Virus record (IMG/VR): IMGVR_UViG_3300047496_000430
Span: 1 to 64,000 of that record
DNA length: 64,000 nucleotides
Reading direction: 5' to 3' (one strand)
Source: a virus
The position numbers and the translations under genes are program-made. The number at the start of each line of letters is the position of its first letter. Position 1 is the first letter of the stretch. Below, piece by piece: positions 42,647 through 53,928 of the stretch. The notes under the pieces were generated by a model. It worked only from the letters and a program-made list of their open reading frames with translations, ran no database searches and had not been told where the DNA came from.

Positions 42647-43222
42647 TCAGTGAATCTTCCGATAGGCCGCGACCCGGCAACACCAGTCGATGAAGACGTC
42701 TTGCGCCATCGCATGCTTCATGAAGTTCACTGCGGGGTGCACCCACTGGACATTGCCCGGGATGTAACCCTTCTCGCTGTCAATGCGGTCAAGAGAAGCT
42801 ACTGTTTCTCCCTCTGCGAGCGTCTTCTTCGTCATGCCGAGTGGTGCTCCGGTTAGAGCGCATCGGCGTCCTTGTTGTTCAAAAATAGACCACAGTGTCG
42901 CGGCCGTTACTGAGAATACAAATCCTCGGTGACGCGCCTGCGTACGAAGACACCCGTAACGATGCCCACTCAGGTGGCCCGCCGACGCGTACTTCGACCG
43001 GTACGTCCGTGTCTGCATTCGCGCGCAACCGCAAGACTGCGGTCCCTGTTCTACGCGTCTTGGCCTACGCCCTATAGTTGATGCGCGCTTGACTAGCTCC
43101 TTGCCGCACACGCAACGCACACGCCACATAACGTCACCGCGCGCGGCAACTTCACCCGTGGGGGCTAGCACCGTCAACAAGCCGATGACTTTTCCGGCCA
43201 AGTCCTTTCGGATGTTCGGCAT
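42647..43222 (-). CDS. HNH homing endonuclease (191 aa)
   Basis: N-terminal region (DLAGKVIGLLTVLAPTGE, RVRCVCGKELVKRAS, CGCAR) is a Cys-rich DNA-binding part seen in phage HNH enzymes. The catalytic part has CALTGAPLG, SLDRIDSEKGYIPGNVQWV and HPAVNFMKH, the D-R-I-D...GY...N-V-Q-W...N-x2-K layout of HNH homing enzymes. Start ATG 43222 overlaps the RNA polymerase stop as TGATG, so translation is likely coupled. It is a free-standing mobile gene; no intron is seen in the polymerase gene. Confidence 0.85.
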   Translation of the reverse strand: MPNIRKDLAGKVIGLLTVLAPTGEVAARGDVMWRVRCVCGKELVKRASTIGRRPRRVEQGPQSCGCARMQTRTYRSKYASAGHLSGHRYGCLRTQARHRGFVFSVTAATLWSIFEQQGRRCALTGAPLGMTKKTLAEGETVASLDRIDSEKGYIPGNVQWVHPAVNFMKHAMAQDVFIDWCCRVAAYRKIH

Positions 43223-46200
43223 CAATAGAAGTGCTCCGGCACATCCTTGAGGTGCCCGTAACCGGGTTTGCTGGCGTCCCTCTTCGTCAGACCTAGCTCG
43301 CTGCCGAAAGCCATGCCCGGGACAGGGTGCGTCCCGTGGATGTGCGACACGCCGCGCGTTGCCGCCGCCTCCATCAACGTCTCGCGAAGATGCCGGTGCT
43401 GCAACTTCGCCATCCAGTCTTCTTGCATCTCGAGAGGTAGAACTTCAATGCCTTTCAGCGTCGGCTTGTGTTCGATGGGCTTTTTGCTGGCTGCTATGAG
43501 CTCGGCGTTGAGCTTGTAGACCGTCGTCGTCGGGCGATACTCCCCACGAAGAACAGTCGGGTGGTCTCCAGAGTCCGTGACCTCGGTGAGATTCCCCATC
43601 ACGCGCACGATGGTCTCGATGGCGCGGCGCTTGATGCCCTCCTTCGCGTAGAGACCGTGAATCTCGTCGACGAGGTGTCCCTGCACACGCTCCATCGAAT
43701 TCGTCGCCTTGAAGAGCTGGCGCGGGTTCACGACGGTGCGGTTCGGGTCGGAGAGATGCTGACCTGCCTCGACCTGCATGCCGACGACGGGCGGCTGCCA
43801 GGGCATGTAGCCGCTGATGCCCCGCGAGTTGGGCAGCGCCGCGTGCAACGGCATCCCGCGCGCGTCGTTGCTGACGTGGTGACGCTTGCCGCCGACAAAG
43901 ATGTCCACACCTGTCGCGGTCGGTTGAATCTTCTCGACCTTGCCGCTGACCATCGACAGCGTCGCCTCGTTCGGTACGTGCTCCGGCAGCATCAGCAAGT
44001 TCGAGAAGTGCTTGAAGGCGTTGACGACCTTCGAGCCGCTCGCCTCACGCACGCCACCCGTGTGGAAGGCCTTCAAGGTCAGCTGCACTGCGCGCTCACC
44101 AACCGTGTGCGCCGAGAGAACGCCGATGTTGGTCCCGAGCGGATGCAGGTCTCCCGAAGAAGAAACTCCACTGCACTTCTGGCAGATGCCCTGCTCCTCC
44201 TCACACTTCAGCGGCGAACGAACGACGAGCCTGGCGTCCTTCTTGACCGACCGAATCTTACCCACGATGTCCGGTGTGAGCAGCGTGCCCGCCGGTACGT
44301 GCAGACCATCCTGGTCGAAGTCCTTCTGCAGGTAGCGGTCGTGAATGTCCCGCTCCTGCACCGACAGAGCAACGCCCTTATTGGTGCCACAATCGTGCTT
44401 AGTGATGAGCACGTTCATCATGTTCTGCATCAACAGCTTCGACATAACGCCGGGTTTCTCGACACCCTGGACCTTGAGGACTGCGCCCCGCCGCGCACCG
44501 TGCATCTGCGTCCAATAGCTGCCGAGGTCCAGACCCTCAGAGTAGCTCTTGGTGACCGGTGTCGGGATGTCCTGGTCAGCGGAGTCCTGGTAAATCATCG
44601 GGGCCAAGACCATCTGCTTGTACTGCTCCCAGCCCGGCTTCACGCCCGCGCTGTACATCGTGAAGAGATTCGAAGGGTCCTTCTTCATCTTCTCTTCGTG
44701 CAGCGTCTTCATCGTGTTGCCGGCTGTCTTGTAGACGTTGATGGCCTGGCGGTCCTTGTCAGCCTGCGGAATCTTTGTGCTCGCGTAGATGCTCGCGGCT
44801 TCGGCGTGCGCCGCCTTCAAGACCTTGTCGCGCGTCTCATAGTCTGGGGTGAAATCCTTGAGCGACAGCGTGTGCACCCCCGTGGGGACGAAGATGTTCT
44901 TGCTCGGGTCGTGCACGGCAACGTGCGTGTTTTCGAACTTCTGGAACGCGAAGGCATGGCCAGCGGCTGTGGGCAGCGGCAGGCGTACCGAGCCAGAGGC
45001 CGCGCCGTTGCCGATGTCCTTTAGCTTGTTCACGACGTCGCCGTAGAGCTCGTGATGGTTCTTCGCGAGCGTCGTCAGCATCGCGTCAAGCCCCTTGCCG
45101 TCGACCTTCGTGTTGAAGTCATGGAGATAGGTGTCCTGCATCTCCTTCGGCAGCGCAGCCGCGAGCATCACGCGCCCCGGCGTGGTTTTCTTCCCATCCA
45201 GCTCGACGACATCAGTCGACAGCAGATGACCCTTCTGGACGGCCTCGACAACCTGCGCCGGGTTCTTGAAGGTCTTCCCCGTCTCCTTGCCGACGAGCCC
45301 GAGCTTGTAGAGGCCGAGTGCCGACTCGAGCGTCGGCTGGTACATCACGCGCCCCGTCGCCTCGCTGAAGAGGTTGTTCGATGGGAACATCTTGTGGGCC
45401 TCCGCAACGGCCTCACGCGTGATGGGGACATAGGCGCTCATCGAGTCACCGTCGAAGTCGGCGGTGAATCCCCCAGTCACGAGCGGGTGAATCTGCACCG
45501 CGCTACCTTCGACACGACGCGCACGGAAGCCTTGCACCGAGTACTTGTGAAGCGCAGGGTCGCGCTTGAGTAGCACGGGGCGCTCCTCCATCACCCGGTC
45601 GAGCGCACGCCAGACCGAGGGCGTCGGCTTGGCAAGCAGCGCTGGTGCCTGCAGCTCCGTCTGGATGGCGCCCATCTCGCGCAGCTTCCGAATGACAAAG
45701 GGTCGATAGAGGCTGAGCGCTGCGTGACTCGGGAGTCCGACTTCATCGAGACCGAGCGCGGGCTCCGGCACGATGGTCGAGCGCATCGTCAAGTCCTGTC
45801 GCCGGTTGATGAGCACGCGCTGGAAGTAGCCACGCTTCGGCTGGCTTCCGCTGATTTGGTGCAGGATGCCCTTGAGTTTCTGCCCCTCGTACGGGATGCC
45901 GACGCCCATCAGCGCCTTCACGCCGTCGTAGAGACTCTCGCGAAGCTCTTGCTTGTGCGCGTCGTCAAGGTTCTGCGCGATGACCGGGTCCTTCAGCTTA
46001 TCGTTCACCTTCGCGAAGTCCGAGTAGAGCTTCGTGAGTCCCTCGAACTGAAGGTTGCCGTCGGGCAGCCGCGAGACCGCACGCAGCACGGGCGGCATCA
46101 CCGGCAGATTGTGCAGCACGTATGCGTCCGCCGGCTTGAGGTTCGCAGTGTCGAGCGCACGCAAGTACTTCACACGCTTCAAGACACTGTCGACCTTGTG

Positions 46201-49200
46201 CTCACCACGCACCGTTCGCAGTTCTTCTTCGGCCTTCCGCAGGTCCTTCTTCACGTCGATGCGCTCAAGAAGCAGCTTGATGCCAGCACCGCCGGTGATG
46301 CCTGCATGCGTGTCCGTGAGATGCCCGTTGGGCGTGATGCCGCGTGTTCCTGCGATGACGGCGTCGTAGTCCTTCTGCGAGAGCCCGGTGAGGTGTCGAA
46401 TCGGGGCTTCGAAGACAGGGTTGGGGAGCGGCTCGGCCAGCGAGATGCGCGTCCACTGTCGACCCCCGTGACCGCCCGTGAGCTTCTCGTCGAAGAGGCC
46501 ACCCGTGATGGGCTTCGGGTCGCCGTTCCCGTCGACCTTGTTGCGATGCACCAGCTCTGCAGGCTTCGGCAGCTCCTTCGGCGCGAGCGTTCGAATCTGG
46601 TCATCCGTCAACGGCGTGAGGATGAAGTCATGTCCCTTCTTCTCGAGGTTCACACCTGCACCACGCAGGAGGTCTTCGAATTTCTGGAACGCGAAGGTCG
46701 GCTTCGGCGTAGGCAGCGCGCCACCAGTCGCAATGGCTGCCCAAATGCGTCGATGGTCACTGGGCCACTGCTTCGAGGGGCTCGTGTTCGGGTCCGGCCC
46801 TTCAGACTTGTACGACTGCATCTCACGGATGTTCGCCTTCGCGCCGTGCGCGAGGAGCGCGTAGAGCCCGAGGGTTCCCATCGCCTGACCGCCGGTGTGC
46901 CCACCGCTCGCCGGTTGCAGGTTCGAGTCGTAGGTCTCGTGCTCTCCTGACCCAGGAAGCGGGTCCATGCCGCTGCGCACTGAGAGCTTCTTGTCGACCT
47001 GGTGCACGAGCTTGAGCATGTGCATCGGACCCACAAGCGCGTGTCCGAGACTTTGCTTGGTGACCGGGTCGATGAGCTCCTCGGTGTCGGAGAGCCCGTG
47101 CGTCTTCAAGTCACTCTTCACCCGCGCGAGGAAGTCGACGCCCGGCTCAAAGTTCTCGACGAGGTAGGTCTTGCCCGTCTTCTTGGCGACCTTGCCGGCG
47201 GCCGTCTCGAGCACCTGGCTCACGTTCATGCGCCCAGGAACGCCGCTGGGGTTCAGGGCCACTTCGATGTGCTCGCCGTTGGGCGTGTGCGGCATCTCTG
47301 CGTCAGGGAGGATGCGCGTGACGATGCCCTTGTTGCCGGCGCGTCCGGTGAGCTTGTCGCCGACCTGCATCGGCTCCGTGGTCTTCACGTGCACTGAAAC
47401 ACCGTCCGGCCCACGGTGCACACTCACTACCTCGCCCGAGGCGTCCGCGTCCCAGCGCAAACTCTTGTCGGTGTGCGCACCGCTCATGCTGCGCCGAATC
47501 GCGCTGAGGCCAGTACGGTCCTTCAGACGGAACGGCTTCATGGCCGCAACAAGCGGGTCGCCGGGACTGACTCGGCTACCGACGCGCACGATGCCGTCGT
47601 CGTCGAGCTTTGCGAGCTGGTCCTTCTTGAAGACGTTGTGATGCTCGCGCATGAACGCGGCTTTGTTGAGCTTCGTCTCCCCGTCGACCGCGAGCGTGTG
47701 CTTGTGGAGGTGCTCGCTCGAGAGCTTATCCGCCGCAGACTGGCTGATGACGATGCCGTCCTCGAAGTTGTAGCCACGAAAGGGGATGAACGCGACGCGG
47801 AGGTTCGTACCGAGAGCGAGTGTGCCGTTCTTCGAGAAGTTCGTGTCCGCGACCGACTTGCCCTCCTTCACTTCGTCCCCGACCTTCACCGTCGGCGTCG
47901 AGTGCAGCATCCCCTTGGCATCGTTCAACGGGTAGTGCTGGTAGAGCTGGACCTCGTGCTTCTGTCCGCTCTTGTCCGTGATGACGATGGCGTCCTTCTT
48001 CACCGACGTCACGTGCCCATCGACCGGCGCGACGTGCGACGCGAAGTCCCCGACGACCTGCTCGAAGGTGACCGGCCCCGGGACACCCGTAGAGACCTGC
48101 ACCAGCGGCGGCTCACGATGCACCAACGAGATGGCCTGCTCCATCTGCCGGCTGGCCATCGAGGCACGACCGCCGCTGGTGTTCCCCATGAAGGGGATGA
48201 GGTTGGCCGTGATGTTGAAGAGCTGCGCCGGCAATCGCATCACGTAGTGCGCATCTTCGAACTTGCCGTTCTCGATGGCGTTGTTCTTCACGCTCATCTT
48301 CACGGTGTCGGAGATGGGCTTGGGCCGCCCGTTCTCCCAGCGCACCTGGTCGGGGAGCACGACGTTCGCATCTAGGAACGTGGCTGCGTTCACGTGCTCC
48401 ATCTCGTGAGTGCGCGTGTTGTAGAGCTGGATGCGCGCCTCGTTGCCGACCTTCTTCAGACCGACGGGCAGGCGGAGCGTGACGCCTGTCTTCGCACCCT
48501 CGGGGGTGTTGATGGGGTCGAGGAAGCCGAGATGGCTCGGGTTCACGAACTTCGCCTCGTCGACGATGCCGCGCTCGCTACGGATGCCGCCCGGTCCCAT
48601 GATGGTCGTCTGCATTGCAGAGCCGAGCATCTCGAGAGGGTTGATTTGCGACGGCGTGGACGAGGCTTCGTTCTCCTTGAAGGTGTCGCGGACCGGGCGG
48701 TCGAAGAGGTCCATCTTGATGATGTCGCGCACCTCCTTCGCCGTGTTGATTTTCCTCTCAATGCGCTTGCGAATCCCAGGACCTGCACCGCGCAACTTGT
48801 CGTAGGCGAAGTCTCCGGCCGAGCGCAGGTCCTTGAAGACGAGGCTGTCACGGTCATCTTCTGGATGGCCGGCCTGGACCTTGAGCATCTTCTCCGTCGC
48901 GAGCCGAATGGCTTCCGACGTCACATGCGTGAGCGGCTTTCCGAGTGTAACGCTGGTGGAGTCAGGTCGGAGCTTTGAGCGCTCCATTGCCTGGTAGAAG
49001 TGAGCCGCTGCCTCCTCGTGCGACGACGGCGCCGTTCCTTTGCTAGTACGGTAGAACGCCTCGAGCGCGGCGCCGACATTGCGCGCGTTCTTGTTGGCAG
49101 TGAGGATTTCTTTCCCCCACGCCTTCTCGAGCTCTTCGTCCGTCGCGCCGAGCGTCTTCAGCAACGGGTACAACGGCGGGTGCGCCTTGTTGTAGTCCAT

Positions 49201-49668
49201 CGTGAAAATCTTCGTGTCCGGGTCGAAGGCGAGGTCGAACCGGCGCCCGTCCTTCACGTTGAACTGACTCTCGAGCTCACCGTTCTGCCTGCGGCGCGCG
49301 TACACGCCAGGCTTGAGCTGCCACTGGTTCGAGACCTGGTACTCCCGCCCATCGACCAAGTAGCTGTGGCGACGCGTGGTCTTCGGAATCTCCGCTACCC
49401 GGATGCGCTGACGGTCGATGAGTTGCCCGGCCTTGTCCTTCAGCGCGAATGTTGCGAAGACAGGTACGGCCCAACTCTCGCCGTTCACCTTCGCGGCGTG
49501 CTGCCCACGAATGTCATCTGGGTGCAGGTCATCCTGCACCTCGAGGTTCTCGAGGTGGAGCGATTGCAGCTTCCCTTGAATGCTCCCATTCGGGAAGTGA
49601 CTGCGAATGCCCTCGAGCACGTGGCTCTTGAGGTCGTCGAATGCGTCCGTCGGGGCGAGGTAGGCCAA
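43222..49668 (-). CDS. Single-chain fused beta-beta' RNA polymerase (about 2,148 aa)
   Basis: Beta part: HLGFLDPINTPEGAKTGV, GYNFEDGIVIS, GNKGIVTRILPDAEMPH (near 47330) and GGQAMGTLGLYALLAHGA, each matching bacterial RpoB motifs. Beta' part starts near 46600 (DDQIRTLAPKEL): ALHKYSVQGFRARRVEGSAV, then T-A-D-F-D-G-D at 45465-45445 with the three magnesium Asp, and the second zinc site with HDCGT (about 44390) and CEEEQGICQKC (about 44190). The N-terminal beta' zinc site is missing. TTG 49668 has GGAG six bases upstream; ATG 49722 and a frame opening at 49803 are alternatives lacking a ribosome site. It would transcribe phage genes. Confidence 0.9.
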   Translation of the reverse strand: MAYLAPTDAFDDLKSHVLEGIRSHFPNGSIQGKLQSLHLENLEVQDDLHPDDIRGQHAAKVNGESWAVPVFATFALKDKAGQLIDRQRIRVAEIPKTTRRHSYLVDGREYQVSNQWQLKPGVYARRRQNGELESQFNVKDGRRFDLAFDPDTKIFTMDYNKAHPPLYPLLKTLGATDEELEKAWGKEILTANKNARNVGAALEAFYRTSKGTAPSSHEEAAAHFYQAMERSKLRPDSTSVTLGKPLTHVTSEAIRLATEKMLKVQAGHPEDDRDSLVFKDLRSAGDFAYDKLRGAGPGIRKRIERKINTAKEVRDIIKMDLFDRPVRDTFKENEASSTPSQINPLEMLGSAMQTTIMGPGGIRSERGIVDEAKFVNPSHLGFLDPINTPEGAKTGVTLRLPVGLKKVGNEARIQLYNTRTHEMEHVNAATFLDANVVLPDQVRWENGRPKPISDTVKMSVKNNAIENGKFEDAHYVMRLPAQLFNITANLIPFMGNTSGGRASMASRQMEQAISLVHREPPLVQVSTGVPGPVTFEQVVGDFASHVAPVDGHVTSVKKDAIVITDKSGQKHEVQLYQHYPLNDAKGMLHSTPTVKVGDEVKEGKSVADTNFSKNGTLALGTNLRVAFIPFRGYNFEDGIVISQSAADKLSSEHLHKHTLAVDGETKLNKAAFMREHHNVFKKDQLAKLDDDGIVRVGSRVSPGDPLVAAMKPFRLKDRTGLSAIRRSMSGAHTDKSLRWDADASGEVVSVHRGPDGVSVHVKTTEPMQVGDKLTGRAGNKGIVTRILPDAEMPHTPNGEHIEVALNPSGVPGRMNVSQVLETAAGKVAKKTGKTYLVENFEPGVDFLARVKSDLKTHGLSDTEELIDPVTKQSLGHALVGPMHMLKLVHQVDKKLSVRSGMDPLPGSGEHETYDSNLQPASGGHTGGQAMGTLGLYALLAHGAKANIREMQSYKSEGPDPNTSPSKQWPSDHRRIWAAIATGGALPTPKPTFAFQKFEDLLRGAGVNLEKKGHDFILTPLTDDQIRTLAPKELPKPAELVHRNKVDGNGDPKPITGGLFDEKLTGGHGGRQWTRISLAEPLPNPVFEAPIRHLTGLSQKDYDAVIAGTRGITPNGHLTDTHAGITGGAGIKLLLERIDVKKDLRKAEEELRTVRGEHKVDSVLKRVKYLRALDTANLKPADAYVLHNLPVMPPVLRAVSRLPDGNLQFEGLTKLYSDFAKVNDKLKDPVIAQNLDDAHKQELRESLYDGVKALMGVGIPYEGQKLKGILHQISGSQPKRGYFQRVLINRRQDLTMRSTIVPEPALGLDEVGLPSHAALSLYRPFVIRKLREMGAIQTELQAPALLAKPTPSVWRALDRVMEERPVLLKRDPALHKYSVQGFRARRVEGSAVQIHPLVTGGFTADFDGDSMSAYVPITREAVAEAHKMFPSNNLFSEATGRVMYQPTLESALGLYKLGLVGKETGKTFKNPAQVVEAVQKGHLLSTDVVELDGKKTTPGRVMLAAALPKEMQDTYLHDFNTKVDGKGLDAMLTTLAKNHHELYGDVVNKLKDIGNGAASGSVRLPLPTAAGHAFAFQKFENTHVAVHDPSKNIFVPTGVHTLSLKDFTPDYETRDKVLKAAHAEAASIYASTKIPQADKDRQAINVYKTAGNTMKTLHEEKMKKDPSNLFTMYSAGVKPGWEQYKQMVLAPMIYQDSADQDIPTPVTKSYSEGLDLGSYWTQMHGARRGAVLKVQGVEKPGVMSKLLMQNMMNVLITKHDCGTNKGVALSVQERDIHDRYLQKDFDQDGLHVPAGTLLTPDIVGKIRSVKKDARLVVRSPLKCEEEQGICQKCSGVSSSGDLHPLGTNIGVLSAHTVGERAVQLTLKAFHTGGVREASGSKVVNAFKHFSNLLMLPEHVPNEATLSMVSGKVEKIQPTATGVDIFVGGKRHHVSNDARGMPLHAALPNSRGISGYMPWQPPVVGMQVEAGQHLSDPNRTVVNPRQLFKATNSMERVQGHLVDEIHGLYAKEGIKRRAIETIVRVMGNLTEVTDSGDHPTVLRGEYRPTTTVYKLNAELIAASKKPIEHKPTLKGIEVLPLEMQEDWMAKLQHRHLRETLMEAAATRGVSHIHGTHPVPGMAFGSELGLTKRDASKPGYGHLKDVPEHFY

Positions 49669-49786
49669 TGGTTTCTCCGCGGAACTTCTGGGCCGCAGGG
49701 TAGCTCGCACGCGAGAACACATGCAAGGCAGAACCAAGCGGTGGAATAAGAGCACTGGAGGATGACACGGCACGGAAGGAGCGAAA

Positions 49787-49915
49787 ATGGGGCCCGAAAG
49801 CAAGGACGCTGGCGCGCTGTTTCAGCGACGCATCGAGCAGATGTTCGAACTCGAGGAGCAACAAGATGACGAAGATGAACCAGAAGAAGACCTCGATGAA
49901 GGGAATACAACGTGA
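49787..49915 (+). CDS. Acidic microprotein (42 aa)
   Basis: AAGGAG lies five bases before ATG 49787. The product starts MGPESKDAGALFQRRIEQMF and ends in a strongly acidic stretch (QQDDEDEPEEDLDEG). It opens the plus-strand operon divergent to the RNA polymerase gene; the 118-base gap between them (49669-49786) must hold both promoters, but I see no convincing -35/-10 pair, only a CTCGCAC-GCGAG palindrome at 49704-49715. An acidic peptide beside a polymerase gene could bind the enzyme; speculative. Confidence 0.6.
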   Translation: MGPESKDAGALFQRRIEQMFELEEQQDDEDEPEEDLDEGNTT

Positions 49916-50064
49916 AGGTGCTGTTTCTTCTGTTCTTTGGCGCCGGTCTGTTCAACGGTGCGATGCTCTGGATTCGCGAACATCTACGCAGGGAAAGTGA
50001 GCGCTATGCTCGTCAATCCGTACAGGGACCGGCTAGCGACCCTGCCCGGCACGCGCATCCTTGA
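49912..50064 (+). CDS. Single-pass membrane microprotein (50 aa, GTG start)
   Basis: GTG 49912 overlaps the previous stop as GTGA. The first 20 residues (KVLFLLFFGAGLFNGAMLW) are a transmembrane helix, followed by a basic polar tail (REHLRRESERYARQ). It overlaps the next gene by 59 bases. Membrane role unknown. Confidence 0.5.
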   Translation: MKVLFLLFFGAGLFNGAMLWIREHLRRESERYARQSVQGPASDPARHAHP

Positions 50065-50599: not shown

Positions 50600-51207
50600 C
50601 CGCGTCCGCTGGCCTACTAGAGAAGACGGGCTGGACATGCACAAGCTGCGACGAGCACATCGAGTACGTCGAAGAAGTCTTCCAGTTGCAGGTTGTGGAG
50701 ATGCGCCTCATCGAAGGACACCTCCGCTACTTGCCCATCATGGCGACGAACGGGGACTACCTGTTCGACCCGCAATTCATCTGCTTTCGCTGCTGGGAAG
50801 ACGCCTACGAAGACCTGAAGGAGCACGTCGATGACATGCCGTCCCTGGACGACATGGGAAGCATGTTCGCCTGCTCAACTTGCGGTAGCGGCATTCGCGA
50901 AGGGGAGTACACCATCATCGCGACGCTCGGAGAGATGCATCGCTCTCGCCGCGCACCACAAGGACACCACGACCCGACGTTCGTGCCTTCAGGAGCGCCG
51001 ACAGTCCTCTGCCTCTACTGCGCGAAGTGTGTCGATGAGCAGTCCATCGATATGTGGATAGGACTGGGACACAACAACGACTGCCTCGAGTGCGCGCACG
51101 TTCGCTGCTGGCGCAACGACGTGACGTGCGAGTGCCACTGCCACACAGACGACCCCTACGAAGAAGAAGACGTCGAAGACGACACTGAGGAGGACACCGA
51201 TGGCTGA
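50557..51207 (+). CDS. Multi-zinc-knuckle hypothetical protein (216 aa)
   Basis: At least four Cys pairs: CTSC (about 28-31), CFRC (about 76), CSTC (about 106), CLYC/CAKC and a CLEC...CWRN...CECHCH group near the C-terminus, ending in an acidic run (YEEEDVEDDTEEDTDG). This suggests two or three treble-clef/zinc-ribbon units. ATG 50587 (MAYIAASAG) is an alternative start. It overlaps the MoxR gene by eight bases and so is probably made together with it. Confidence 0.7.
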   Translation: MDAQRHFESSMAYIAASAGLLEKTGWTCTSCDEHIEYVEEVFQLQVVEMRLIEGHLRYLPIMATNGDYLFDPQFICFRCWEDAYEDLKEHVDDMPSLDDMGSMFACSTCGSGIREGEYTIIATLGEMHRSRRAPQGHHDPTFVPSGAPTVLCLYCAKCVDEQSIDMWIGLGHNNDCLECAHVRCWRNDVTCECHCHTDDPYEEEDVEDDTEEDTDG

Positions 51208-52429
51208 GAAGACCGAGAAGAAAGTGGGCGATGACCAAATCGTGGTGCACAACCTGGAGGACATCCTCCAGATGGCGCTGCTGGTCCCGAAGGATGACCC
51301 GCGAGACCCAGAGTGCCGCTGGGGGGCACCCATCTGCCTCTGGGGCTCGCCAGGCATTGGCAAGTCGGGCCGTGTCGAGGTTGCCGGCACGCGACTCCAG
51401 TTGCCTGTGGAGACGGTCTACCTCGCTACGAGGCAGCCCGAGGACATCTCCGGCGCACCGTTCCAGGACGTCAAGAACGGCGGCATCACTATCGAGACGA
51501 TTCTCGGGGCCGTCCGCACACTCGTCGCCGCGAAGAAGGGCGTGCTGTTCCTCGACGAGCTGTCGTGCGCACGACCCGCCATCCAGGGCGCCGCGCTCGG
51601 TGTCGTCTACGAACGCAAGGTCGGCGACACCGTGCTGCCGCCGCGCGTGCGCGTAGTTGCCGCGGCCAACCCCCCGGAAGAAGCCGCCGGCGGCTGGATG
51701 CTTTCTCCCCCGATGGCCAACCGCTTCATGCACTTCACGGTGCCTGTGCCTTCTCGCGCGGAGTGGAGCGAGTGGCTCATGGGGAACGACGCGAGAGAAG
51801 ACGTCAACCTCGCAGCGAACGAAGCGATGGTTGCCCAGAACTGGGACGTGGTCTGGGCACGCGTGAAGGGCGCCGGCGCGGGCTTCATGCTGAAGAGCCC
51901 GGACGACACGCTCTACGCGCTGCCGCGCGAAGGCAGCAAGGACCGCACGCGCGCATGGCGCTCCCCGCGGTCGTGGGAGCTCGGACTGCGCGCAGTCGCC
52001 ACGTGCCGAGCCCTGGGACGTCCGGAGCTCGAGCTCGAGCTGCTCACTGGCTGCGTGGGTCACGCAGGCGCTGAGATGTGGGCGACGTACAACAAGAACC
52101 TCGACCTCCCGGACCCGAAGGAGATGCTCGAGAAAGGCTGGACGCCGGACAAGATGCGCCTCGACGTCTGCCACGCCGCGTACTCCTCGGCCATCAGCTA
52201 CGCGCTCGACCCAAAGGACAAGAAGGAGCAGCGCGCGCGTGCAATTCTCGCGTGGAAGCTTCTGCAGGGCGGCCTCAACGCGAACATCCCCGACATCATC
52301 GCGCACCCGGCGAAGACGCTCATGAAAGCGGGCTACCGCGCGTCCGTCGATGCGGAGCTCAAGGCTGTGGCGGGTGAAATCACCCTTCGCTTCGGCCACA
52401 ACAAAATCGCGAACATGGTCTCGCGATGA
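51200..52429 (+). CDS. MoxR-family AAA+ ATPase (409 aa)
   Basis: Walker A GSPGIGKS (49-56), Walker B LFLDE (116-120), and a sensor-1 Asn in VVAAANPPEE (N157), with an AAA+ lid after residue 240. The order and the short lead-in match MoxR-type ATPases, which act as chaperones that remodel or load cofactors into partner proteins, usually with a VWA-domain protein. The next gene encodes exactly such a partner, overlapping by four bases (ATGA). GAGG lies six bases before the ATG. Confidence 0.9.
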   Translation: MAEKTEKKVGDDQIVVHNLEDILQMALLVPKDDPRDPECRWGAPICLWGSPGIGKSGRVEVAGTRLQLPVETVYLATRQPEDISGAPFQDVKNGGITIETILGAVRTLVAAKKGVLFLDELSCARPAIQGAALGVVYERKVGDTVLPPRVRVVAAANPPEEAAGGWMLSPPMANRFMHFTVPVPSRAEWSEWLMGNDAREDVNLAANEAMVAQNWDVVWARVKGAGAGFMLKSPDDTLYALPREGSKDRTRAWRSPRSWELGLRAVATCRALGRPELELELLTGCVGHAGAEMWATYNKNLDLPDPKEMLEKGWTPDKMRLDVCHAAYSSAISYALDPKDKKEQRARAILAWKLLQGGLNANIPDIIAHPAKTLMKAGYRASVDAELKAVAGEITLRFGHNKIANMVSR

Positions 52430-53928
52430 GCAACCACGAAGAGCGCATCGCAGTCGCGCGCGCCTTCGCCATCTTGACAGCGCCCTACTACATCGCCGCG
52501 ATTCACGGGTTCGTGTTCGTGGCGGTGCCCGGGTGTCGCACGATGTTCCTCACGCGGAATCTCATCTGCGGGTACGACCCTGAGTGGGCCGTGCGCGCAA
52601 CGGACGAGGAACTGGCCGCGGACATCATCCACGAGGTGAACCACTTCCTGCGTCGGCACTTCGAGCGGTCCGACACCGTGGCGTACCCAGACCTCTTCGC
52701 TCTCGCCGGCGACCTACCCATCAACTCGGACATGCGAACTGCGGGATGGACGCTCGAAGAAGGCTCCATCTACCCCGAGAGCTTCGACCTGCCCGCCGGG
52801 CTGAGCACAGAGGAGTACTACGAACTCCTGCTCAAGAAGAAGAATGAAGAGGAAGAAGAGGAGAAGAAAAAAGAGAAGGACGAACAGGAGGGCGGCGACG
52901 AAGAGGGCGAAGGAAAAGGCGGTGCTCCCGGCGGACAGAACAACAAGACCGACGGCGACCAGAAAGGCGCCAGCGGGAAGAAGCCGCAACCGGACCCGAA
53001 TGCCAAGAACGCTGGAGCGGGCAGCGGCAAGCCAGGCAAGGGGCAAAGCACACCCAGCAAAGGCGGTGGCGCGGGTGGCAAGGGCACACCGGTAGATAAG
53101 AAGTGCGCCGCAGGCAACTGCGGGTCCATCGCCGGTCCCTCCCACCCGCTCGAGCAAGCGACGTTGGAGCAGCTCGCTGCAAGTGTTGGCCGCAACGAGG
53201 TCGAACAGAGGGTCATCGAGAAGCAGGTCTCGCAAGCCATCAAGACACACGCAGCGACGAACGGTCGGGGGTCCGTGCCCGCCGACCTTCTCTCCAAAGC
53301 CGAGATGGACGACGAGCCCTCGACCATTCCCTGGCAACAGGAGCTGGCATCGGTGCTGCGCAACACCTCTGGACGCATCCAGTCCGGTGGTGACGACTAC
53401 TCCATCTCGCGGCCATCAAAGCGTTCTGGACTGCGCCGCGGTCTCATCAGACCTGGCCTGGTCGAGCACCTTCCCGAGGTCGGCATCGTCATCGACACCT
53501 CGGGCTCGATGGGTCCGCAGCAGCTCACTGCGGCCGCGCGCGAGGCCTACGCCGTTTGCCAGGCGCTCGGCATCGACGAGGTCTGGTTCTGCGAAGCAGA
53601 CGCCGCCATCTCACAAGACTGGAAGCGCGTCGGTCCTTCCTTCTTCCGCGACCTCGAGATTCGTGGCGGAGGCGGTACTGACTTCGCGCCCGCCATCGCC
53701 AGCGTGGACCGGTTGAACCCCCGACCGGACCTCCTCGTGTACTGCACCGACGGCGACGGCCACGCTCCTAAGCAGCCGCCACCAAATCTCGAAGTCGTAT
53801 GGGCAGTAGTTCCTTCGTACTTCAACCGCGCTCCCGCTCAATGGGGTCACACGGTCATCATCTCCGATGACCTGGGTCGTCGTCGACGCGAGCTCATCCT
53901 CCCAGACGATACAAAGGACACGCCATGA
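52426..53928 (+). CDS. VWA-domain protein with N-terminal HExxH metallopeptidase-like region (500 aa)
   Basis: Residues 1-125 hold H69-E-V-N-H73 in ADIIHEVNHFLRRH, the motif of the DUF2201-type putative metallopeptidase region. Residues 137-225 are a charged Glu/Lys then Gly/Lys/Pro linker. Residues 350-495 are a VWA-like domain with the MIDAS D357-T-S-G-S361 (IVIDTSGSMG) and GGGGTDF as the third MIDAS part. Such proteins pair with MoxR ATPases, as here. Target unknown. Confidence 0.9.
   Translation: MSNHEERIAVARAFAILTAPYYIAAIHGFVFVAVPGCRTMFLTRNLICGYDPEWAVRATDEELAADIIHEVNHFLRRHFERSDTVAYPDLFALAGDLPINSDMRTAGWTLEEGSIYPESFDLPAGLSTEEYYELLLKKKNEEEEEEKKKEKDEQEGGDEEGEGKGGAPGGQNNKTDGDQKGASGKKPQPDPNAKNAGAGSGKPGKGQSTPSKGGGAGGKGTPVDKKCAAGNCGSIAGPSHPLEQATLEQLAASVGRNEVEQRVIEKQVSQAIKTHAATNGRGSVPADLLSKAEMDDEPSTIPWQQELASVLRNTSGRIQSGGDDYSISRPSKRSGLRRGLIRPGLVEHLPEVGIVIDTSGSMGPQQLTAAAREAYAVCQALGIDEVWFCEADAAISQDWKRVGPSFFRDLEIRGGGGTDFAPAIASVDRLNPRPDLLVYCTDGDGHAPKQPPPNLEVVWAVVPSYFNRAPAQWGHTVIISDDLGRRRRELILPDDTKDTP

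What the first reader, a model, noticed from the sequence alone, without database searches (positions are those of the whole stretch)
43222..49668. RNA polymerase beta and beta' joined in one phage protein
Beta motifs (GNKG, NFED, GGQAMG) and beta' motifs (ADFDGD, second zinc site) occur in order in one uninterrupted frame of about 2,150 residues. Known phage multisubunit polymerases (phiKZ, AR9) are split over several genes, and small single-chain forms such as YonO are far shorter. This one keeps much more of the bacterial plan, as in naturally fused rpoBC of Helicobacter. No alpha, omega or sigma-like gene is visible in the window, so it may work alone or with a separate promoter factor.
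Basis: partly seen in the sequence, partly recalled or inferred. Interest (0 to 1): 0.85.

Follow-up and report, generated by a model that had tools for sequence, protein, structure and literature searches.

The report
One-chain phage RNA polymerase, sigma partner
A bacterial virus carries both halves of a bacteria-like RNA polymerase joined into one protein and, elsewhere in its genome, a promoter-recognition (sigma) factor that most of its relatives examined also carry, so it probably reads its own genes with a two-part enzyme.

Summary
The minus strand at 43222-49668 encodes one 2148-residue chain: bacterial-type beta followed, almost without linker, by beta' lacking its first zinc site. 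Predicted halves match nearly whole bacterial beta (Z 34) and beta' (Z 29). It is no artefact: of 255 viral loci, 184 (127 distinct sequences) hold it full length in one frame, and none of the 249 that reach the native beta/beta' border has a gene boundary there. A sister clade (isolates Salmonella phage Arash, Vibrio phage D69) keeps the joint but is cut elsewhere, so fusion looks ancestral. Of 45 RNAP-bearing records searched, 36 have a homologue. In 50,697 phage records, close homologues occur only in the four whose RNAP is nearest to this one. No alpha or omega match was found. Best reading: a one-chain core working with a dedicated phage sigma. Bacterial-type phage RNAPs (mReC, 2020) and a divergent fused one (crAss-like phages) are known; my searches showed no text describing the bacterial-plan fusion, its re-splitting or the sigma pairing.

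The parts
43222..49668 (-). single-chain beta-beta' RNA polymerase gene, 2148 aa, TTG start with GGAG upstream
46639..49668 (-). beta part, residues 1 to about 1010
   Evidence: model pLDDT 88.2; PDB match Z 34.3, 855 aligned
43225..46638 (-). beta' part, residues about 1011 to 2148
   Evidence: model pLDDT 88.5; PDB match Z 29.3, 1018 aligned, chain range 16-1375
46636..46680 (-). beta/beta' junction, residues 997-1011, almost no linker
   Evidence: alignment with bacterial RpoB/RpoC; last and first aligned residues (8igr_I; 6xl5_D)
47758..47769 (-). beta NFED motif, residues 634-637
47326..47337 (-). beta GNKG motif, residues 778-781
45898..46026 (-). beta' clamp-helices segment, residues 1215-1257 (the sigma region 2 dock in bacteria, recalled)
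   Evidence: alignment
45445..45462 (-). catalytic ADFDGD, residues 1403-1408
44173..44391 (-). second zinc site, Cys 1760, 1822, 1829, 1832
44053..44085 (-). trigger loop QLTLKAFHTGG, residues 1862-1872, His 1869
49669..50005 (.). divergent intergenic stretch upstream of the RNAP gene; presumed promoter region
   Evidence: my own gene calls; no promoter element was identified here

Best explanation
The gene encodes the catalytic core of a bacterial-type RNA polymerase as one chain: beta, then beta' without its first zinc site. Shown: open frame, motifs, predicted fold, conservation among relatives. Inferred: it is active; it assembles without alpha and omega, because the fusion replaces the platform that brings beta and beta' together; and it is directed to phage promoters by the phage's own sigma-70-family factor (record G000, 156060-156848), which would dock on the retained clamp helices and flap. 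The phage would thus transcribe some of its genes independently of the host polymerase. The fusion was probably present in the common ancestor of this family; a sister clade later cut the fused chain inside beta'.
For: Open frame and ordered domains; invariant catalytic residues; fold matches over most of both subunits; 184 of 255 loci carry it full length in one frame (127 distinct sequences), 14 more cross the junction but are cut by a contig end. Sigma factor: Sigma70_r3 8.4e-10, above cut-off, phrog_351 sigma 5.8e-8, SigA chain 7.7e-7. Homologue in 36 of 45 RNAP-bearing records, all over 100 kb; 25 of 26 of at least 160 kb. In 50,697 phage records 19 match at E 0.01, but only D69, D181, D148 and Arash below 1e-15 (next best 3e-6); these four have the best RNAP matches there (30-32% identity over 69-90% of the chain). 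No alpha or omega match in the record, with controls ringing. Clamp-helix and flap segments align with bacteria. IQ-TREE of 30 chains: fused clade 100, split clade 100, three-piece 99 and nested among two-piece; FastTree of 72 chains agrees.
Against: No activity, interaction or promoter data. The sigma factor could act on host RNAP instead. Its region 2 match is weak (12.4 bits, cut-off 24) and region 4 is not recognised. The clamp-helix residues differ from bacteria. Nine of 45 records gave no sigma match, one of them 170,766 bases long. Each half was modelled alone, so their mutual arrangement was not tested. In the beta-only tree the three-piece group has support of only 0.65.
Confidence: 0.75

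Rival explanations
1. The one-chain enzyme recognises promoters by itself, and the conserved sigma factor serves another purpose: it takes over host RNA polymerase.
For: Phage sigma factors that retarget host RNAP are known (general knowledge). The sigma gene lies about 106 kb from the RNAP gene in this record. Sigma region 2 and 4 profiles barely match.
Against: Close homologues of the sigma factor in the phage collection occur only in the four records whose RNAP is nearest to this one. The clamp helices and flap, which bind sigma in bacteria, are retained.
Confidence: 0.15
2. The chain is the core of a hybrid enzyme that recruits host alpha and perhaps omega and host sigma.
For: The chain keeps nearly the whole bacterial beta and beta'; no alpha or omega match was found in the record.
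Against: Most related records searched keep their own sigma (36 of 45); fusion removes the main need for alpha as an assembly platform (inference).
Confidence: 0.15
3. It is a virion polymerase, packaged with the DNA and injected to transcribe early genes, rather than one made during infection. This concerns timing and can hold together with the best explanation.
For: The gene heads a leftward block that includes terminase, major head protein and tail sheath. In phage Arash the RNAP gene lies one small gene after the portal gene, and the shared sigma gene lies near genes labelled structural.
Against: No proteomic evidence was available; gene position alone does not show packaging.
Confidence: 0.35
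4. Assembly or frameshift artefact joining two genes.
For: None found.
Against: 184 of 255 loci show the same one-piece frame, 127 distinct sequences.
Confidence: 0.01

Closest known systems
mReC phage RNAP (multi-subunit RNAP-encoding Caudovirales, PMC7481178)
   Same: Phage-encoded, alignable bacterial-type beta and beta', on a branch apart from bacteria. Two of its three named representatives come from metagenome 3300017989, from which L341, a one-piece member of this family, also comes.
   Different: The paper speaks of beta and beta' subunits; 'fused' and 'fusion' occur in its main text once each, for crAssphage, and 'sigma', 'split', 'intein' do not occur. Its eight detected capsid proteins matched PF07068; 0 of 44 records here did, but no control genome rang either. 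Supplementary lists could not be read.
crAss-like phage phi14:2 gp66 RNAP
   Same: beta and beta' equivalents in one polypeptide of a phage.
   Different: [quoted passage not shown] this chain matches a cellular profile at 1e-62 and bacterial subunits by fold.
Fused rpoBC of Helicobacter (L149 here)
   Same: beta joined to beta' in one frame (2901 aa).
   Different: Separate origin by phylogeny; L149 has about 20 more residues at the joint and keeps zinc site 1, the phage chain does neither.
Salmonella phage Arash and Vibrio phage D69
   Same: Sister clade; beta still joined to the first half of beta'; same sigma family.
   Different: beta' cut at about window residue 1490; a second sigma-like gene found in 12 of 12 split-clade records and 0 of 13 fused-clade records; the trigger-loop motif is altered.
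Cobetia phage Carin-5 and Yersinia phage YerA41 RNAP
   Same: Phage RNAP related to the bacterial type; Carin-5 has a gene annotated RNA pol sigma factor directly upstream.
   Different: Separate genes in the order beta' then beta; outside the fused-plus-split family in trees.
phiKZ and AR9 jumbo-phage RNAPs; YonO; P23-45 gp64 and gp96
   Same: Phage RNAPs with the two-barrel core.
   Different: Jumbo-phage cores correspond to at least four or five polypeptides (PMC7598289, passages); YonO and the P23-45 enzymes are described as single-subunit and highly diverged.

Membership tests
Bacterial-type beta/beta' RNA polymerase | Beta and beta' domain order, DFDGD, bridge helix, trigger loop, zinc site 2 | tested here: met
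   (Rpb1_1 below Pfam's cut-off, the other four above)
Bacterial-type beta/beta' RNA polymerase | Fold of the two large subunits | tested here: met
   Z 34.3 over 855 residues (beta), Z 29.3 over 1018 residues (beta'), predicted models
Bacterial-type beta/beta' RNA polymerase | Zinc site 1 in the beta' N-terminal clamp | tested here: not met
   segment deleted in the window and in the six other phage rows shown
mReC | Phage branch apart from bacterial RNAPs | tested here: met
   no archaeal or mReC reference sequences were available
mReC | NADxDGD motif used as the paper's filter | tested here: not met
   window has TADFDGD; 100 of 127 distinct relatives have NADFDGD
mReC | Gp23-type capsid PF07068 (all eight MCPs detected in the paper) | tested here: inconclusive
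   0 of 44 records; no control rang; hmmscan of the window head protein shows no PF07068; it matches phrog_2522
mReC | TerL of PF03237/VOG01069 type | tested here: inconclusive
   window TerL matches PF05876 and phrog_675; PF03237 in 17 of 44 family records, 13 over cut-off, not in the window's; VOG not available
crAss-like single-chain RNAP | No recognisable similarity to cellular beta/beta' profiles (as PMC7481178 reports) | tested here: not met
   strong Pfam matches, (Pfam, not the paper's COG models)
Helicobacter-type rpoBC fusion | Same fusion event | tested here: not met
   L149 nests within bacteria
sigma-70 family (the 262-aa partner) | Sigma70 region 3 profile over cut-off | tested here: met
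   39.1 bits vs cut-off 25.3
sigma-70 family (the 262-aa partner) | Sigma70 region 2 and region 4 profiles over cut-off | tested here: not met
   region 2 12.4 bits vs 24; region 4 no match, 11.8 bits over residues 133-159; the SigA alignment covers query residues 71-160
sigma-70 family (the 262-aa partner) | Binds an RNAP core and directs initiation | not testable with these tools
   needs biochemistry

The most novel reading that the evidence does not exclude
A self-sufficient two-component viral transcriptase: a bacterial-plan RNAP core in one chain plus a dedicated sigma, needing no host alpha, omega or sigma, and possibly carried in the virion. Its lineage fused beta and beta' once, long ago, and then re-cut the chain at new places in one clade.
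Probability: 0.4. Interest if true: 0.82.

Novelty: new variant of a known kind. Interest (0 to 1): 0.62.

Why it matters
It would be among the simplest natural sigma-dependent enzymes with a bacterial-plan core: two chains instead of six. That offers a compact system for studying sigma and core without alpha and omega. The fused-then-recut history, with the native border not seen as a gene boundary in any of the 249 informative loci, is a natural experiment on where RNAP tolerates breaks. The family is widespread: one viral scan found 520 stretches encoding a relative (only the best 80 were examined, and the rest may include other RNAPs). The sister clade includes isolated phages (Arash, D69), so the ideas can be tested now.

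Tried and rejected
Artefact or frameshift: rejected by 184 one-piece loci. Helicobacter-type relation: rejected by trees. No tRNA and no Rfam family in the window.

Some 'phage' hits without annotation look bacterial: MT836236 groups with Prevotella. I did not test the other unannotated records (Staphylococcus, Listeria, Enterococcus and others), and 25 of its 65 records were not listed.

Promoter search: an EM search on 77 upstream stretches gave a purine-rich motif (aGAAGaaC) that scored above shuffles (62.5 against 27.6-37.5 at width 9) but looks like composition rather than a promoter. The element GG[GC]A[TC]AAG occurs 27 times in the record, 10 of them 15-60 bases upstream of my own gene calls on the same strand and none on the mirror strand. 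It was picked after looking at the data, so the binomial p (1.3e-9) is not corrected and it is only a lead; which polymerase reads it is unknown.

A viral scan with the Carin-5 beta' found nothing. Literature searches. Recalled, not from a call: the roles of clamp helices and flap in sigma binding, the rifampicin-contact positions, the six-chain make-up of bacterial holoenzyme.

Full report
OBSERVATION. The window is bases 1-64000 of a 177,425-base virus record. On the minus strand, 49668 down to 43222, one frame of 2148 residues starts at TTG with GGAG just upstream. Pfam places beta domains and then beta' domains along it, four of five over cut-off. In an alignment of the window protein with nine one-piece relatives (A1, 41-65% identical to it) the residues of NFED and GNKG, the beta' DFDGD, the four cysteines of zinc site 2 and the trigger-loop histidine are invariant.

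ANATOMY. Against bacterial RpoB and RpoC, the beta part ends in the usual C-terminal helix (window ...LLRGAGVNLEKKG) and the next residues already align with the beta' N-terminus. The first and last aligned residues of structural matches give the same picture: residue 997 at 1326 of a beta chain (8igr_I) and residue about 1011 at 16 of a beta' chain (6xl5_D). The linker is therefore close to nil, whereas Helicobacter anseris (L149) has about 20 more residues there. The seven phage rows shown lack the cysteine-rich first zinc segment of beta'. Clamp helices, flap, bridge helix and trigger loop are present, although residues in the clamp helices differ from bacteria. The rifampicin-pocket segment also differs at several positions; insensitivity is an inference. 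AlphaFold models of the two halves from 72-row alignments have mean pLDDT 88.2 and 88.5. They match bacterial subunits: Foldseek E 6.6e-72 and 6.4e-62; VIA-align Z 34.3, rmsd 3.5, 855 aligned, and Z 29.3, rmsd 4.5, 1018 aligned. The halves were modelled apart, so their mutual placement was not tested.

FAMILY. Viral scans gave 21 loci, the best 80 of 520 relatives, one, the best 80 of 359 and the best 80 of 551; weaker ones were not examined, and some contigs came back in more than one scan. I classified 255 viral loci: 184 one-piece full length (127 distinct sequences), 14 one-piece across the junction but cut by a contig end, 11 two-piece, 37 three-piece, 9 other or partial. Six of these nine end at a contig edge before the junction (L217, L234, L236, L237, L259, L261), leaving 249 informative loci; none has a gene boundary at the native beta/beta' border. 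In two-piece members the first gene aligns to about window residue 1450-1495; in three-piece members its alignment ends about 100-130 residues past the junction. The isolates Vibrio phage D69 and Salmonella phage Arash are two-piece.

PHYLOGENY. A FastTree of 72 chains and an IQ-TREE of 30 chains, LG+F+G4, 1000 ultrafast bootstraps, agree. In the latter: fused clade 100, split clade 100, phage against bacteria 98, three-piece 99 and nested among two-piece members. In FastTrees of the halves the fused and split clades also hold (0.996-1.0), but the three-piece group has 0.65 in the beta half. Since both sister clades carry the beta-beta' joint, and the three-piece form still carries a piece of beta' on beta, the simplest history is one ancestral fusion followed by cuts inside beta'. 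Helicobacter groups with bacteria. Carin-5 and YerA41, with separate genes, fall outside the family but next to it; with no archaeal outgroup and long branches, I do not lean on that.

SIGMA. Region 2 gave a weak hit at 156540-156626 in the same record and region 4 none. The 262-residue frame around it (156060-156848, minus strand) scores over cut-off for Sigma70 region 3, matches a phage sigma family and aligns with SigA. I searched 45 RNAP-bearing records, own included, all over 100 kb, picked by me from those then held (not every such record). Of these, 36 have a homologue at E 0.01 or better. The nine misses are G001, G011, G012, G023, G024, G025, G027, G038 and G040, lengths 103-171 kb; at 160 kb or more the count is 25 of 26. 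The call warns that virus records may be fragments, and some records are near-duplicates, so they are not independent. In the 50,697-record phage collection 19 records match at E 0.01, but only D69, D181, D148 and Arash below 1e-15 (the next is 3e-6). These four also have the best RNAP matches there; weaker RNAP matches among the 65 records were mostly not classified. A second sigma-like gene, Arash gp196, has homologues in 12 of 12 split-clade and 0 of 13 fused-clade records tested. Alpha and omega profiles found nothing in the window's record, while their controls rang in 13 and 14 of 14 genomes.

SETTING. My own rough gene calls put the RNAP gene at the head of a leftward block with terminase (phrog_675), major head protein (phrog_2522) and tail sheath (phrog_279), facing a rightward block. 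In Arash the RNAP gene lies one small gene after the portal gene and the shared sigma gene lies near genes labelled structural. A virion role is possible but unproven.

MECHANISM. Most likely the single chain folds into a normal crab-claw core without the alpha platform, and the phage sigma brings it to phage promoters. Shown: sequence, predicted fold, conservation, presence of the sigma and its association with this RNAP family. Inferred: activity, independence of alpha and omega, sigma pairing, rifampicin insensitivity, timing in infection.

KNOWN WORK. PMC7481178 (I read parts 1-3 of 6 and passages found by search) reports a deep phage clade with beta and beta' and mentions fusion only for crAssphage. 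Two of its three named representatives come from metagenome 3300017989; L341, a one-piece chain, is from that metagenome, so the sets probably overlap. I could not check further. [quoted passage not shown] PMC7598289 was seen in passages. Searches of the held library (listings only, apart from the papers named) showed no paper on a bacterial-plan one-chain phage RNAP with its own sigma; most subscription papers are not held, so this is not proof of absence.

VERDICT. Real, conserved, and a new variant of a known kind; the sigma partner and the fused-then-recut history are the new points. Interest 0.62.

Noticed in passing
L007, L009, L010, L011, L013, L014, L076, L094, L321, L322, L327, L336, L351, L352, L356, L374, L378: 18 of 127 distinct one-piece chains exceed 2260 aa; in these 17 an insertion was located, at or near conserved motifs (window residues about 390, 632-636, 774-822, 1397-1449, 1870). 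Three checked (L009, L013, L094) contain LAGLIDADG matches; L009 also has an intein-splicing match below Pfam's cut-off.
   Followed up: partly
L194:9986-15504: Beta itself is interrupted at window residue about 495 by some 930 bases in one split-clade contig, perhaps an intron or homing element. D181 and D148 have an annotated homing endonuclease under the RNAP match.
   Followed up: no
L023:4897-5673 and L024:5561-6598: A second sigma-like gene confined, in the 25 records tested, to the split clade.
   Followed up: partly
window 51200-53928: Adjacent AAA ATPase and DUF2201 metallopeptidase/VWA-domain genes on the plus strand, divergent from the RNAP gene.
   Followed up: no
G000 intergenic regions, e.g. 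65279, 78785, 106352, 140496, 175930: Candidate promoter-like element GG[GC]A[TC]AAG, 10 of 27 copies lying 15-60 bases upstream of called genes on the same strand, none on the mirror strand; found post hoc.
   Followed up: partly
G000 near 77043, 100565, 133046, 141179: TTTTTCTAGC recurs between genes; by eye it often follows a G+C-rich inverted repeat, as if part of terminators.
   Followed up: no
L308:1541-8366: Cobetia phage Carin-5 has an annotated sigma gene directly upstream of separate beta' and beta genes.
   Followed up: no
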